Source: Deltaproteobacteria bacterium (GTDB lineage Bacteria; Myxococcota; Myxococcia; Myxococcales; SZAS-1). Taken from it: DNA of 37,489 nt. The notes beneath the pieces are model-generated. The model had not been told where the DNA came from, searched no databases, and saw nothing but the letters and a program-made list of their open reading frames with translations. The position numbers and the translations under genes were made by a program. The stretch lies in the NCBI GenBank assembly GCA_018266075.1, contig JAFEBB010000071.1, forward strand, positions 1 through 37,489. Direction: 5' to 3'. Shown one piece after another: positions 194 through 9,869 of this stretch (position 1 is its first letter; every line of letters starts with the position of its first letter).

Positions 194-1069
194 ATGGCCG
201 ACTTGCTTCGGGGAGGAAGTCTCATCGACGAGGTGGCGATCCCATCGGCGATTCCAATTCTTCCTCTCGCGAATGCCGTCTTGTTTCCCGGAGGCGTCTT
301 GCCCCTCGCATGCCGAGGCCCCGGGAGCATTGAGTTGGCAAAGGATGCCGTCCGCGACGACTTGCTCATTGGCATCGTCGCACACCGTCGCGCCGACGAC
401 GTGCAGGTGGGCCTCGCCGACCTTTTCCCCATGGGGACGATCGCGAGGATCACCAAGCTCTTCCGAATGCCTGACGACTCCTACTCCGTGGTCATCCAAG
501 GTCTCGCCCGCTGTCGACTCGGCGAGCTCGTCGACTCTCCTCGCTACCTTCGAGCGCGAATCACTGCGACCCCGGATGAAGGTGAGCCTCCCTCCGCTGA
601 AATGACCCATCACCTGCGTGAGGCGACGCTCGAACTGATTGCCCAGGTTCCCGAGATCCCCGTTGAGGCAAGCGAGCTGGTCGCCTCCATTGTCCATCCG
701 GGACACCTGGCAGACCTCATCGCTGCCAACCTCAACGTGGCCATTCCCGAGAAATTTGCTGTCCTCAACGAGCTCTCATTGCAGCCACGAACGCTGCGTG
801 TTCAGGCTCTCGTCGACGATGCGCTAGCGAAGCCGATCGTCCGAGCGGCGATCGGATCGGTGGAGGATAGGCCCCGCTGTCTGCGCCACCGACGTCTCAC
901 CCACTCCGTGTGCAGCCGTTGTGGGAAGTTCACCTGCGCTTCGTGCGTGCCAGGTCCAAACAAGGAGTCCCTTTGCCACGCGTGTCTTGAGCTGCAGCGC
1001 AAGCCGAGCGACTTGAAGACCGCGGGGTTCTTCGCGCGGGTGTGGAAGGCGATGCGAAACCAGTCCTGA
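194..1069 (+). CDS. Lon substrate-binding (LAN) domain protein with C-terminal zinc finger
   Basis: This 291-residue protein opens with a Lon N-terminal-type domain: residues 20-38 read like the conserved 'PILPL..AVLFPG' entry of that family, and 75-125 (DLFPMGTIARI, then IQGLARCRL) continue it. A helical segment follows to about 212. There is no AAA+ ATPase and no Ser-Lys protease domain, so it is not a protease by itself. The C-terminus holds a Cys/His cluster (C229, H232, C240, C243, C248, C251, C261, C264) that looks like a B-box-type double zinc site. GGAG sits 9 bases before the ATG. The next gene starts 13 bases after the stop, so the two are probably one operon. Stand-alone LAN proteins are known, but their role is unclear; substrate recognition or an adaptor role is inference. 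Confidence 0.75.
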   Translation: MADLLRGGSLIDEVAIPSAIPILPLANAVLFPGGVLPLACRGPGSIELAKDAVRDDLLIGIVAHRRADDVQVGLADLFPMGTIARITKLFRMPDDSYSVVIQGLARCRLGELVDSPRYLRARITATPDEGEPPSAEMTHHLREATLELIAQVPEIPVEASELVASIVHPGHLADLIAANLNVAIPEKFAVLNELSLQPRTLRVQALVDDALAKPIVRAAIGSVEDRPRCLRHRRLTHSVCSRCGKFTCASCVPGPNKESLCHACLELQRKPSDLKTAGFFARVWKAMRNQS

Positions 1070-3125: not shown

Positions 3126-3422
3126 GTGACGAGCTCGGATTGGCCATTCGACCACGCGAAGAACGTCGGGTGCGTCACCACGCGCCAGGTGCTTCGGGAG
3201 AACGCGCCCATCACGGTGGTCATCCACTACTCCGACGATCACTCCTGGGCGTTCCTGGGCGGAGACGACTTCAAGGTCTCCGACGGGCTCCTGATCGCCA
3301 TGTCCGAAGCCGCCGAGCTCGACCCAACCCTCTTCGAGGTGGCCGACCTGGAGCCGGGATGGACCGCTCAGCGAGACCATGTGTGTGGGTCGTGGACCCG
3401 AGAGTTCGCCCCGGAGATGTGA
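3126..3422 (+). CDS. Imm33/DUF2185-like protein
   Basis: A 98-residue protein starting at GTG 3126. It reads like the DUF2185 family, also called immunity protein Imm33: a leading C-V-T-T-R-Q-V segment, a central 'HSWAFLGGDD' with aromatic residues before a Gly-Gly-Asp turn, then 'AELDPTLFEVADLEPGWTAQRD', a hallmark-like ending. In polymorphic toxin systems such proteins neutralise a cognate toxin, but many DUF2185 proteins occur alone. The gene before it, 30 bases upstream, is of unknown family and does not look like a toxin. The family call is by recognition only and is moderate. Confidence 0.55.
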   Translation: MTSSDWPFDHAKNVGCVTTRQVLRENAPITVVIHYSDDHSWAFLGGDDFKVSDGLLIAMSEAAELDPTLFEVADLEPGWTAQRDHVCGSWTREFAPEM

Positions 3423-3508: not shown

Positions 3509-3859
3509 TCAGCAGCTCGTCTGGCACCGGGTCTGCGCGCGCTGGCAGCGCTGGCGGCAATCCGGGTCCATGAAGCTCGGGGCGCACGCGTTCTCGCACA
3601 CGTGCCGCTCGACGGCGCAGGTGTTGGCGCACGAGCCCGACTTCTCCGAGCTCTTCGTCGGGCCGCCCACGGTCGCGTGGCCGTAGGGGATGTACGAGAT
3701 GCCGTCGCAGCGGCGGATGTCGGGGCTGTCCTCGGAGCCGAAGTTCCACATCACGCCGCGCATCTTCGAATCGCAGCTCGGGGCCTTGAGCTCATCGGCG
3801 AGGGCAACTCCGCTACCAAAACCAACGACGGCGAACAGGGCGATCAGGGCGTTGCGCAT
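3509..3859 (-). CDS. Small secreted protein with two twin-CX3C hairpins
   Basis: This 116-residue protein starts at ATG 3859 with GGAG a few bases upstream. Residues 1-21 form a Sec signal peptide (basic N-end, ALIALFAVVGFGSGVALA, Ala-x-Ala-type cleavage). The mature part has ten cysteines. The last eight are strictly spaced: C77, C81, C88, C92 and then C101, C105, C112, C116, that is CX3C-X6-CX3C twice. Such spacing suits two disulfide-stapled helical hairpins. C29 and C51 may form a further bond. A secreted or periplasmic location is inferred. The gene converges on the Imm33-like gene and diverges from the FG-GAP lipoprotein gene. I do not recognise a named family. Confidence 0.75.
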   Translation of the reverse strand: MRNALIALFAVVGFGSGVALADELKAPSCDSKMRGVMWNFGSEDSPDIRRCDGISYIPYGHATVGGPTKSSEKSGSCANTCAVERHVCENACAPSFMDPDCRQRCQRAQTRCQTSC

Positions 3860-4037
3860 GGCGTTCTCCGGGGGACTTCGAGTGTGTGCATCGCCCGATC
3901 GCCGCGCGATCACCCCTGTCCGCGGCGCGATCGCGTCGGGTCGCGGCCACTTCGTTGATGGCGCCTCGCCGAGGCCCTGCGGAACCACCGCGTCCAGCAG
4001 ATCCCGGGCTATGTTCCCGTCGAGGGTCCAAGCGCAC

Positions 4038-5429
4038 GTGAACCGCTCACTCGCCTGCTGCTTCTCCGCGCTCGCGCTCGCCGGATGCTTTCGTGCGAGC
4101 TCCGGAGGTGCCTCCTCGACCGCCTCGGGCTCGGGGACCACCGTCGGCAGCGGCTCCACGGCCAGCAGCGGTTCGTCGAGGACGGCCTCGACGGGCACGA
4201 GCAGCTCGAGCGCTTCATCCTCCGGCACTTCGAGCTCAGCCACCTCGAGCTCGAGCTCTGCGTCGTCATCAAGCTCGGCGTCATCGTCCAGCTCTTCCTC
4301 CTCGAGCTCGTCCTCGAGCACAGGCTCCTCGAGCGGCAGCACCGGCGGCCTCTGCCCGCCCGTCTTCGAGGGCCTCGATGCGGGCTATGTCCTCCTGAGT
4401 GAACCGTGGGCCCTCGCCCTTGCCGATGTGAACCGCGACGGCATCCCCGACGTGCTGGCCCTGGAGCCGAATGCACAGCTCCTCGAGCTCTATCTGGGAA
4501 ACGGAGACGGCGGCTTTCGGGGAATTGGCTCCGGCAGGGCTTTCTCGAGCTCCACGTGGATTCGCGCATGGGCGCTCGCGGTCGCAGACTTCGACGGAGA
4601 TGGTTGGCTCGACGTCGCGGTGTCAGGAGACGACACCGCCTACGCAGTCCTGATGGGTGCAGGAGACGGGGGCTTCAAGCCCGAAGTCGTGACTGCACTT
4701 TCGCACTCGGACTTCATCAAAGACATCGCCACGGCCGACATGAATCAGGACGGGAATCCCGACCTGATCCTGGCCATTCAGACTCCGGATGGCGGCATCA
4801 TTTCCGTCTTGAACGGCTTCGGTGACGGCGGGTTCTCCGACGGAACGGACCTCTCGGCTGGCTCCAGTGCGTGGGCGCTGGCGGTGCAGGACCTCAACGG
4901 CGACGGCTGGCCGGACATCCTGCTGGCCGGCGACGGCGTCACGGCGTTCCTCAATCTGGGCGACGGCGGCTTCAGCGCCAACCACCTCGCCGCCGGCCCA
5001 TATCCGACGGCCATGACGGTCGCAGACTTGAACTCCGACGGCGCGCTCGACCTCGTTGTGACGGAGCAGAGCGCCAACACCATGGGTGTGCTCTACGGTG
5101 ATGGAGCCGGCGGATTCCTCCCGGAGCTGACCTGGAACGTGCCGCGCGTCGGACGAGCGGTGAGGGTGGCGGACTTCAACGGCGACGGCCAGCTCGACAT
5201 CGCCGCTGGGTTGTCATCGGCGCCGGCTGGCGTGGCCTTCCTCCTCGGGCTTGGCGACGGAGGATTCGCCTCCCCGTACGACCTGAATGGTCCCGGCGCG
5301 CCGATGTCGATGACCACCGCAGACATGAACGGCGATGGCCTGGCCGATCTGATTGTTGGCTTGAACGGGGCGTTTGGTGGGCTGGACCTCAGGGTCCTCA
5401 CCAACTCGTCCGCGTGTGCTGCGCCGTAG
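4038..5429 (+). CDS. FG-GAP/VCBS repeat beta-propeller lipoprotein
   Basis: The GTG at 4038, with GAGGG upstream, gives a compact lipoprotein signal (NRSLACCFSALALAGC); an ATG at 4011 in the same frame would add nine residues. After the lipobox Cys come about 95 residues of almost pure Ser/Gly/Thr/Ala. Seven repeats then follow, each with a Ca2+-loop-like D-x-N/D-x-D-G core (for example ADVNRDGIPDVL, ADFDGDGWLDVA, ADMNQDGNPDLI, QDLNGDGWPDIL, ADLNSDGALDLV, ADFNGDGQLDIA, ADMNGDGLADLI), most paired with a (G)DGGF strand. Seven blades fit a closed integrin-alpha-like propeller. Such proteins are typically surface-exposed binding or structural proteins; the ligand is unknown. The low-complexity tether is encoded by repetitive AGC/TCG-type codons. 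Confidence 0.85.
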   Translation: MNRSLACCFSALALAGCFRASSGGASSTASGSGTTVGSGSTASSGSSRTASTGTSSSSASSSGTSSSATSSSSSASSSSSASSSSSSSSSSSSSTGSSSGSTGGLCPPVFEGLDAGYVLLSEPWALALADVNRDGIPDVLALEPNAQLLELYLGNGDGGFRGIGSGRAFSSSTWIRAWALAVADFDGDGWLDVAVSGDDTAYAVLMGAGDGGFKPEVVTALSHSDFIKDIATADMNQDGNPDLILAIQTPDGGIISVLNGFGDGGFSDGTDLSAGSSAWALAVQDLNGDGWPDILLAGDGVTAFLNLGDGGFSANHLAAGPYPTAMTVADLNSDGALDLVVTEQSANTMGVLYGDGAGGFLPELTWNVPRVGRAVRVADFNGDGQLDIAAGLSSAPAGVAFLLGLGDGGFASPYDLNGPGAPMSMTTADMNGDGLADLIVGLNGAFGGLDLRVLTNSSACAAP

Positions 5430-7709: not shown

Positions 7710-9869
7710 ATGCCGTCGATTGCTTCGTCTGCCCGAATCCTGCCCACGCTGGCCGCCGCGCTGCTCCTCGCGAGCTCGGCGGACTGCGCCAAGAGCGTCT
7801 CGGAAACTGGCCCTTCCTCGGGCTCCACGGCCGCCGGCGCGACCGCCACGGGTACCACGGGCGCCACGGGCAGCAGCTCGGTGGGCAGCATCGCCAGCAG
7901 CGGCAGCTCCAGCGCGAGCAACTCCACGGCCTCTACCGCCACCGCGAGCAGCGGCAGCAGCTCGGCCACGGGCAGTACCGGCGCCGGATCCACCGGCGGC
8001 TCCACCTCGAGCACCAGTGGCTCCACCTCGGGCGTCAGCTGCGCCGGCGGGACCACGCTCTGTGGCGGCGAGTGCGTGCAGGTCTCGGTGGATCCGAGCA
8101 ACTGCGGCACGTGCGGTCACGCCTGCGCGGCGGGCGAGGTCTGCTCCGCAGGGAGCTGCGCCGTCTCGTGTGGCGGCGGGACGACCCAGTGCGGACAGCT
8201 CTGCGTGCAGCTGGACAGCGACCCGAACCACTGCGGCGCGTGCGGCCATGCCTGCGCGTCGGGCGAGGCTTGCGTGGCCGGCGCGTGCGCGCTGGCTTGC
8301 AACGGCACCGCGTGCAACGGCCAGTGCGTCGACGTCGACGTCGACCCGAACAACTGCGGCAGCTGCAGCCACGCCTGCCTGGTGGGGCAGATCTGCTCGG
8401 CGGGCACGTGCGTCACGCCCTGCGGCCCGGGCACCCAGGCCTGCAATGGCACCTGCACCGACACCTCCCTCGACCCCGCGAACTGCGGGACCTGTGGCCA
8501 CGCCTGCGACCCGGGTCTGGTCTGCTCCGCCGGGCTGTGCGTGCTCACCTGCGGCCCCGGGACGCAGCAGTGCGGCCAGACCTGCGTCGAAACCTCGGTG
8601 GATCCCTCGAACTGCGGCGGCTGTGGCACCGCCTGTCCGTCCAACCAGGTCTGCACCGGCGGCCACTGCTCGTCGTGTCCGCCCAGCTTGACGTCCTGCA
8701 ACGGCCAGTGCGTGGACCTCACGAGTGACGTGAACGACTGCGGGAGCTGCAGTCACGCATGCCCCTACAGCGGTCTGGGGACGCCCGTCTGCACCCAGGG
8801 CCTGTGCTCGACGCAGTGCTACTCGGGCTACGGCGCGTGCACGGGAGGCGGCTACTGCAACACGAACCTCCAAACCGACCCGAACAACTGCGGGGCCTGT
8901 GGCACGGCCTGCACGGACGGCGGGTTCTGCAGCAGCGGCCACTGCACCGCCTGCGCCACGGGTCTCACCTACTGCAGCTACAGCTGCACCAATCTTCAGA
9001 CCGACAACTTCAACTGCGGCAGCTGCAACCACTACTGCTCGGGCAGCCGGCCCAACACGCAGGGCTCGTGCGTGGCGGGGACGTGCACGAACACCTGCTA
9101 CACGGGCTACGTGGACTGCAACGGCGACCCCAGCGACGGCTGCGAAGTGAACGTGAACAATGATCCCGCGAACTGTGGCACGTGCGGCACGGTGTGCGGC
9201 TCGGGGCAGAACTGCGTGTCGGGCCAGTGCCGGAACTGCCCCACGGGCCAGAGCGTCTGCAACAACCAGTGCGTGGACCTGACCGCCAGCACCTCCAACT
9301 GTGGCGCGTGCGGCGTCTCGTGCGCGTACTCCGAACCGAATGGCAGCACGGCATGCGTGGCCGGGACTTGCACGCTGGTATGCCAGGCTGGCTACTTCGA
9401 CTGCGACCACAACCCGCTCAACGGCTGCGAGACCGCTGCCGGCCGCAACAACTGTGGCGCCTGCGGGACGGTGTGCACGCCAGACGAGTTCTGCGTGAAG
9501 TCGCAGCTGTGCTCGACCTGCGCGCCGGTGGACCTGGGCAGCACCGTTCCCCAATCCGTGACCGGAACCACCGTGGCCAAGCCGGACTTGTTCAGCGCGT
9601 CCTGCGGCTACGGGAACGCGCCGGACGCCTACTACTCCTTCACCGCACCTTCGAGCGCCACCTTCAACTTCGACACCACGGGCTCGCTGTTCAGCGCGGC
9701 CCTCGAGGTGCGCAAGGGCACCTGCGACGGCCAGCGTCTGAGCTGCAACCTGGGCTACACCACGGCTGCCCGGGTCTCGGTCGCCCTCACCCAGGGCGAG
9801 ACGGTGGTGGTCATCATCGACGGGTACAACGGAAGCCAGGGCACCTACGTCCTGAACGTGAGCCAGTAG
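7710..9869 (+). CDS. Secreted protein with eleven Cys-rich CGxCGxxC repeats
   Basis: 719 residues. The N-terminus is a hydrophobic export signal (ARILPTLAAALLLASSADC); the Cys suggests a lipoprotein, although Asp before it makes the lipobox atypical. About 80 residues of Ser/Thr/Gly/Ala tether follow. From roughly residue 110 to 608 I count eleven units of about 43 residues, each with the pattern C-N-G-x-C-V-D-x-x-x-D-P-x-N-C-G-x-C-G-x-x-C followed by CxxGxC. Units 7 to 11 are more diverged. The last ~110 residues are Cys-poor beta sandwich-like sequence (DAYYSFTAPSSATFNFDTTGS, then VVVIIDGYNGSQGTYVLNV) resembling the C-terminal domains of myxobacterial secreted proteins. Disulfide-rich, extracellular or surface location is inferred. 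Homologues of this repeat type are often mislabelled with unrelated enzyme names. Confidence 0.8.
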   Translation: MPSIASSARILPTLAAALLLASSADCAKSVSETGPSSGSTAAGATATGTTGATGSSSVGSIASSGSSSASNSTASTATASSGSSSATGSTGAGSTGGSTSSTSGSTSGVSCAGGTTLCGGECVQVSVDPSNCGTCGHACAAGEVCSAGSCAVSCGGGTTQCGQLCVQLDSDPNHCGACGHACASGEACVAGACALACNGTACNGQCVDVDVDPNNCGSCSHACLVGQICSAGTCVTPCGPGTQACNGTCTDTSLDPANCGTCGHACDPGLVCSAGLCVLTCGPGTQQCGQTCVETSVDPSNCGGCGTACPSNQVCTGGHCSSCPPSLTSCNGQCVDLTSDVNDCGSCSHACPYSGLGTPVCTQGLCSTQCYSGYGACTGGGYCNTNLQTDPNNCGACGTACTDGGFCSSGHCTACATGLTYCSYSCTNLQTDNFNCGSCNHYCSGSRPNTQGSCVAGTCTNTCYTGYVDCNGDPSDGCEVNVNNDPANCGTCGTVCGSGQNCVSGQCRNCPTGQSVCNNQCVDLTASTSNCGACGVSCAYSEPNGSTACVAGTCTLVCQAGYFDCDHNPLNGCETAAGRNNCGACGTVCTPDEFCVKSQLCSTCAPVDLGSTVPQSVTGTTVAKPDLFSASCGYGNAPDAYYSFTAPSSATFNFDTTGSLFSAALEVRKGTCDGQRLSCNLGYTTAARVSVALTQGETVVVIIDGYNGSQGTYVLNVSQ
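8038..9525 (+). repeat. Eleven degenerate ~130-bp coding repeats
   Basis: The repeats encode the Cys-rich units of the 7710-9869 gene. Units 1-5 are the most regular; later units carry insertions such as the SGLGTP and SGRPNTQGS-like loops. Spacing of the AACTGCGG(C/G) core codons shows the period. Confidence 0.7.

What the first reader, a model, noticed from the sequence alone, without database searches (positions are those of the whole stretch)
3509..3859. Secreted protein with two precisely repeated twin-CX3C hairpins
After a signal peptide, eight cysteines sit at C77/C81/C88/C92 and C101/C105/C112/C116: CX3C-X6-CX3C twice with an 8-residue joint. This spacing recalls disulfide-linked helical hairpins such as small-Tim or CHCH-type proteins, though with a shorter gap between the pairs. 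I know of no named bacterial family with this double arrangement.
Basis: partly seen in the sequence, partly recalled or inferred. Interest (0 to 1): 0.6.

Follow-up and report, generated by a model that had tools for sequence, protein, structure and literature searches.

The report
Bacterial four-disulfide helical hairpin protein
A small protein exported by a myxobacterium carries eight precisely spaced cysteines that most likely staple two helices into one rigid hairpin, a scaffold whose closest solved match is a ribbon-worm toxin and for which no bacterial family is named in the libraries searched.

Summary
Window 3509-3859, minus strand, encodes a 116-aa protein with a signal peptide and Cys at 77/81/88/92 and 101/105/112/116. 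The protein is real: the same genome holds a paralogue (E 2e-12), and ten proteins in six Myxococcales genomes share both modules.

The interpretation changes. Each CX3C-X6-CX3C is most likely one helix, and the two repeats form ONE hairpin with a four-rung disulfide ladder (77-116, 81-112, 88-105, 92-101; inferred). Evidence: X6 is invariant in 26/26 repeats and almost free of Gly/Pro, while the joint varies from 5 to 13 residues and is Gly/Pro-rich. AlphaFold gives exactly two helices for the module (pLDDT 83.6). The profile's best PDB match is the ribbon-worm neurotoxin B-IV (E 0.14, not significant), an NMR-proven four-disulfide helical hairpin with nearly the same spacing.

The exact motif recurs in 13 non-repetitive Myxococcota proteins, most with an export signal. 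Spacing controls (X5, X7) give almost only low-complexity DNA. No Pfam, NCBIfam or PHROGs family describes it.

The molecular function is unproven. Best guess: an exported, DsbA-oxidised rigid binding hairpin tethered to a small N-terminal module.

The parts
3509..3859 (-). Complete ORF, 116 aa plus stop codon
   Evidence: paralogue and homologues
3866..3869 (-). Shine-Dalgarno-like GGAG, 6 nt upstream of the ATG
   Evidence: direct reading
3797..3859 (-). Sec-type signal peptide, residues 1-21 (MRNALIALFAVVGFGSGVALA), predicted cleavage ALA/D; no twin Arg, no lipobox
   Evidence: sequence; inference, no signal predictor was run
3680..3784 (-). N-terminal 'CDG' module, residues 26-60, containing C29 and C51 (C-x5-GV.WNFG....P...RCDG..Y); three short strands in the model
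   Evidence: alignments; phylum search; model
3632..3679 (-). Linker, residues 61-76 (short here; a long Pro-rich stretch in homologues)
   Evidence: low pLDDT
3584..3631 (-). Helix 1, residues 77-92, CX3C-X6-CX3C
3560..3583 (-). Turn/joint, residues 93-100 (APSFMDPD)
3512..3559 (-). Helix 2, residues 101-116, CX3C-X6-CX3C, basic (net +4)

Best explanation
The gene encodes an exported protein with a small N-terminal module (probably closed by a C29-C51 disulfide), a flexible linker, and a C-terminal antiparallel helical hairpin. Each CX3C-X6-CX3C is one 16-residue helix with its four Cys on one face. The two helices pack face to face and are stapled by four stacked disulfides, C77-C116, C81-C112, C88-C105 and C92-C101, made in the periplasm by DsbA-type oxidases. 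This gives a very rigid, protease-resistant rod whose outer faces (basic on helix 2) are free to vary. Working model: it is a displayed or released binding hairpin outside the cytoplasm, used as a ligand, inhibitor or antagonistic factor. Shown: the sequence, the family, the invariant spacing, the predicted two-helix hairpin. Inferred: export, disulfide pairing, the binder role. Confidence in the fold is about 0.85; confidence in the binder/display role is about 0.4.
For:: AlphaFold2 gives exactly two helices (residues 75-91 and 99-115 in the mature protein; 75-95 and 99-115 for the module alone, pLDDT 83.6); in 13 modules X6 is 6 in 26/26 repeats with Gly+Pro 2/156, while the joint is 5-13 long with Gly+Pro 34/99 (Fisher p 5e-14); so the joint is the turn. 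Cys at 0, 40, 20 and 60 degrees of a helix in each repeat. The four proposed pairs all sum to 193, the rule for an antiparallel hairpin. Length variation among cysteines of one helix occurs only at the fourth Cys, next to the turn; the module profile's best PDB match, over its whole length, is Cerebratulus neurotoxin B-IV (1vib); in the printed alignment its spacing is X3-X6-X2-X10-X3-X6-X3. Its NMR helices are residues 13-26 and 33-49 (PMC6410017) and it has four disulfides (PMC11722136); nine DsbA-family stretches above cut-off in this genome; every strong hit of the N-module (10/10) carries the hairpin.
Against: The models rest on four sequences; pTM is 0.53 (module) and 0.36 (whole protein), and S-S distances could not be read. 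The B-IV match is not statistically significant (E 0.14) and is carried mainly by cysteines. Foldseek finds no significant structural match. No conserved gene neighbour, no expression data and no conserved surface motif point to a partner.
Confidence: 0.6

Rival explanations
1. Two separate short hairpins: each CX3C-X6-CX3C folds back on itself with pairs 1-4 and 2-3, like two tandem alpha-hairpinin modules.
For: The 4-Cys repeat is palindromic, so pairing within a repeat is formally possible; tandem alpha-hairpinin modules exist in plant precursors (PMC7191063).
Against: X6 never varies in length and almost lacks Gly/Pro, so it does not behave like a turn. AlphaFold gives one continuous helix per repeat. 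In alpha-hairpinin EcAMP1 the Cys are at 7, 11, 25 and 29, a gap of 13 residues rather than 6. All 13 members keep both repeats.
Confidence: 0.08
2. A thiolate metal-binding protein: the eight Cys line the core of a hairpin dimer (a four-helix bundle) and hold Cu(I) or Zn, as in the copper storage proteins (Csp).
For: Csp proteins use CXXXC motifs in helices whose Cys point into the core of a four-helix bundle (PMC5171941); one-face spacing is seen here too.
Against: No DUF326/Csp match (E up to 10). The leader looks Sec-type, whereas exported Csp1/Csp2 are predicted Tat substrates. DsbA-type oxidases are present. No conserved His or Met. No copper gene was recognised next to the gene. The closest spacing match is fully disulfide-bonded.
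Confidence: 0.1
3. A bacterial analogue of small Tim proteins: an oligomeric chaperone of the periplasm.
For: CX3C-bearing helical hairpins in an oxidising compartment; small Tims carry twin CX3C motifs and act as ATP-independent chaperones (PMC5203823).
Against: Twice the number of CX3C per helix; no zf-Tim10_DDP match for this protein (one stray E 0.8 to another myxobacterial protein); helix 2 is strongly polar and basic; very narrow taxonomic spread.
Confidence: 0.04
4. A toxin-like or antimicrobial effector used against prey or competitors, in the manner of venom helical hairpins and plant alpha-hairpinins.
For: Scaffold shared with the crustacean-active worm toxin B-IV and scorpion kappa-KTx; alpha-hairpinins include antifungal and antibacterial peptides; myxobacteria are predators (general knowledge); related hairpins are short secreted proteins with an acidic stretch before the module.
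Against: No activity data. The N-module and Pro-rich linker fit a tethered domain as well. The hairpin itself is only weakly basic (net +1 here). Membrane-anchored lipoprotein versions exist (L029, L065), as does one in a tad locus (L012).
Confidence: 0.18

Closest known systems
Cerebratulus neurotoxin B-IV / beta-nemertides (PDB 1vib)
   Same: Eight Cys; CX3C-X6-C in helix 1 and CX3C-X6-CX3C in helix 2; two helices forming one hairpin with four disulfides; mirror positions sum to a constant (within one) in both.
   Different: C3-C4 gap is 2 (3 or 4 here), turn is 10 (8 here); an animal toxin with no N-module; sequence match E 0.14, so common ancestry is not shown and convergence is likely.
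Plant alpha-hairpinins (e.g. EcAMP1)
   Same: CXXXC motifs in each of two antiparallel helices, mirror-type pairing 1-4 and 2-3.
   Different: Four Cys and two disulfides, not eight and four; CXXXC pairs 13 residues apart in EcAMP1; plants only in that source.
Small Tim proteins (Tim8/9/10/13)
   Same: CX3C motifs oxidised in an envelope compartment; helical hairpin fold (general knowledge).
   Different: One CX3C per helix; oligomeric chaperones of mitochondria; no profile match.
p8-MTCP1 and CHCH (twin CX9C) hairpins
   Same: Disulfide-stapled helical hairpin; p8-MTCP1 appears as a weak fold match (1ei0, TMt 0.54, E 7.8).
   Different: CX9C spacing, eukaryotic proteins (general knowledge); match not significant.
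Bacterial copper storage proteins (Csp1/Csp3)
   Same: CXXXC motifs within helices with Cys pointing to one side, into the core.
   Different: Four-helix bundles of free thiols with many more Cys (18-19 in the Csp3s), Tat-exported or cytosolic; no DUF326 match.

Membership tests
Nemertean B-neurotoxin (B-IV / beta-nemertide) scaffold | Eight Cys in two helices with X3-X6-X2 / X3-X6-X3 spacing | tested here: not met
   all other within-helix spacings agree but C3-C4 is X3 or X4 instead of X2, and the turn differs in length
Nemertean B-neurotoxin (B-IV / beta-nemertide) scaffold | Significant sequence homology | tested here: not met
   E 0.14 with a 16-sequence profile; no phmmer match at E up to 10
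Nemertean B-neurotoxin (B-IV / beta-nemertide) scaffold | Two helices forming one hairpin | tested here: met
   (predicted, not measured)
Nemertean B-neurotoxin (B-IV / beta-nemertide) scaffold | Four disulfides | not testable with these tools
   Needs disulfide mapping
alpha-hairpinin | Exactly two CXXXC motifs, one per helix, four Cys | tested here: not met
   Two CX3C per helix, eight Cys
Small Tim (zf-Tim10_DDP, PF02953) | Profile match | tested here: not met
   no Pfam family at E up to 10
CHCH / twin CX9C | CX9C in each helix | tested here: not met
   Spacing X3-X6-X3
Csp copper storage protein (DUF326) | Profile match | tested here: not met
Csp copper storage protein (DUF326) | Cu(I) binding by free thiols | not testable with these tools
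   Needs purified protein
Any named NCBIfam or PHROGs family | Profile match | tested here: not met

The most novel reading that the evidence does not exclude
Myxococcota use a widespread, unnamed, rapidly diverging class of eight-cysteine helical hairpins as exported weapons or recognition ligands: a bacterial counterpart, arrived at independently, of the four-disulfide helical-hairpin scaffold so far described from animal venoms.
Probability: 0.15. Interest if true: 0.75.

Novelty: new variant of a known kind. Interest (0 to 1): 0.5.

Why it matters
The disulfide-stabilised helical hairpin is described as an emerging motif of animal peptide toxins (title of a paper cited in PMC11722136) and of plant defence peptides. 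Finding its four-disulfide form as a recurrent exported module of myxobacteria, with no profile in Pfam or NCBIfam, gives a ready-made new family, an independent test of how strictly helix geometry dictates Cys spacing, and a set of small stable scaffolds. It also shows how a Cys pattern can be misread: palindromic spacing fits both two hairpins and one, and only comparison of homologues tells them apart.

Tried and rejected
Family libraries: Pfam, NCBIfam and PHROGs gave nothing for this protein and, for the hairpin part of related proteins, only stray sub-threshold hits. PDB by sequence with the single protein or the first 11-module profile: nothing; the 16-module profile gave B-IV. Plasmids, phages and viral contigs: no relative. 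The first genome-contig scan with the single protein found nothing; the second, with three homologues, found three MAG loci. Foldseek against the PDB: no significant match for the whole protein or the module. Promoter and terminator scan near the gene: none. Literature searches found no bacterial description of the motif. The N-module does not match the hairpin by profile. VKOR was not found in this genome; DsbB was not tested. Weak hits L003, L004, L014, L016, L017 and L030-L032 were looked at and rejected.

Full report
Observation. The minus strand of window 3509-3859 encodes a 116-residue protein. The N-terminus reads as a Sec signal peptide ending ALA/D, with no twin Arg and no lipobox (sequence; no predictor was run). 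A GGAG lies 6 nt before the ATG, and the third codon position is 92% GC against 57% and 56%. The tandem motif never arose in 200,000 shuffles of the mature protein.

It is a real family. The same genome holds a paralogue, G000:C7:81477-81830 (E 2e-12; translation), and another Myxococcales genome a homologue (E 5e-6). A three-sequence profile found ten proteins in six of 195 genomes of the phylum, all in the same order, besides weaker partial hits. A search with the N-module alone returned the same ten and nothing else strong, so the two modules travel together. Named loci are an Archangiaceae MAG, a Myxococcales MAG and a Myxococcus MAG. The N-module is C-x5-G-[VI]-x-[WFY]-x-[FL]-G...CDG..[YW] in most members; the linker is short here and long and Pro-rich in others.

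One hairpin, not two. In 13 modules the X6 within a repeat is six residues in all 26 repeats and holds 2 Gly/Pro in 156 residues; the joint is 5 to 13 residues and holds 34 Gly/Pro in 99 (Fisher p 5e-14; the sequences are related, so the p-value overstates). A turn is the part of a hairpin that varies in length and tolerates Gly and Pro, so the turn is the joint. The four Cys of each repeat fall at 0, 40, 20 and 60 degrees on a helical wheel. Mirror pairs 77-116, 81-112, 88-105 and 92-101 all sum to 193. The only Cys that moves is the fourth, next to the turn: X4 instead of X3 in eight of ten family members. AlphaFold2 on the mature protein gave helices at 75-91 and 99-115 (pLDDT 70.5); on the module alone 75-95 and 99-115 (pLDDT 83.6, pTM 0.53). 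Both models used only this window and loci from the search for related loci, four sequences in all. The pairing itself is inferred; S-S distances were not available.

The motif recurs. The exact DNA pattern for CX3C-X6-CX3C-X8-CX3C-X6-CX3C was run over 195 Myxococcota genomes. Apart from TGC-repeat DNA it matched 13 open reading frames (this one included), most with a signal peptide or lipobox: lipoproteins (L029/L069, L065), short secreted proteins with an acidic stretch before the module (L070-L074), two different hairpin ORFs on one small locus (L066), and the C-terminus of a long Cys-rich protein (L076). The same pattern with X7 gave repeats, stop-broken frames and Arg/Pro-rich frames such as L088; with X5, repeats, one Arg/Pro-rich frame (L101) and one Cys-rich repeat protein (L103). 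So X6, the spacing that keeps Cys on one helix face, is favoured. Further modules with other joint lengths are in L012 and L013.

Closest known thing. A 16-module profile searched against PDB sequences put neurotoxin B-IV of the ribbon worm Cerebratulus lacteus first (1vib, E 0.14) and a scorpion kappa-KTx second (E 0.21). From the printed alignment the B-IV cysteines are at 12, 16, 23, 26, 37, 41, 48 and 52; its helices are 13-26 and 33-49 (PMC6410017), with four disulfides (PMC11722136). This is a solved precedent for CX3C-X6-C lying in one helix. The E-value is not significant and the match is mostly Cys; convergence is the sober reading.

How it probably works. Export by Sec, oxidation by DsbA-type enzymes (nine stretches over cut-off in the genome), folding into a rigid stapled rod joined by a flexible linker to the N-module. 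Helix 2 is basic (net +4). The rod probably binds something outside the cytoplasm; whether as an envelope ligand, inhibitor or weapon cannot be told. The gene stands alone: convergent with 3126-3422 and divergent from an FG-GAP protein at 4011-5429, and neighbours differ between homologues.

Verdict. A real, unnamed module; a new bacterial variant of the disulfide-stabilised helical hairpin. Fold confidence about 0.85; function open.

Noticed in passing
window 7710-9869, + strand: 719-aa secreted Cys-rich protein with five stretches matching Pfam Stig1 (stigma-specific STIG1-like family, E 1e-43), a family named from plants.
   Followed up: partly
window 4011-5429, + strand: Secreted FG-GAP repeat protein (E 1e-58) with a Ser-rich linker, divergently oriented from the hairpin gene.
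   Followed up: partly
window 194-1069, + strand: LON substrate-binding domain protein (E 1e-35) with a C-terminal extension holding a CxxC..CxxC zinc-ribbon-like stretch.
   Followed up: partly
L012 1438-1782 / L047: A stand-alone eight-Cys hairpin protein encoded amid TadE/TadG-like genes and just before a Flp-pilin-like gene, suggesting a tad pilus locus.
   Followed up: partly
L066: Two frames on one small locus each encode a signal peptide and an eight-Cys hairpin of different sequence.
   Followed up: partly
L005 452-1522 (-) and L042 7049-7852 (-): In one genus the hairpin gene is followed by a lipoprotein gene ending, in L005, in two Cys-rich 'CxSSxDCGGGxFCR'-like repeats.
   Followed up: no
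L018-L020: Longer family members carry a second, different C-terminal Cys-rich domain after a Pro-rich stretch.
   Followed up: no
L070, L071, L073, L074: Small secreted proteins: leader, acidic stretch, hairpin beginning CCYDC, conserved SYNNC tail; look like one rapidly diverging family in genus g24.
   Followed up: no
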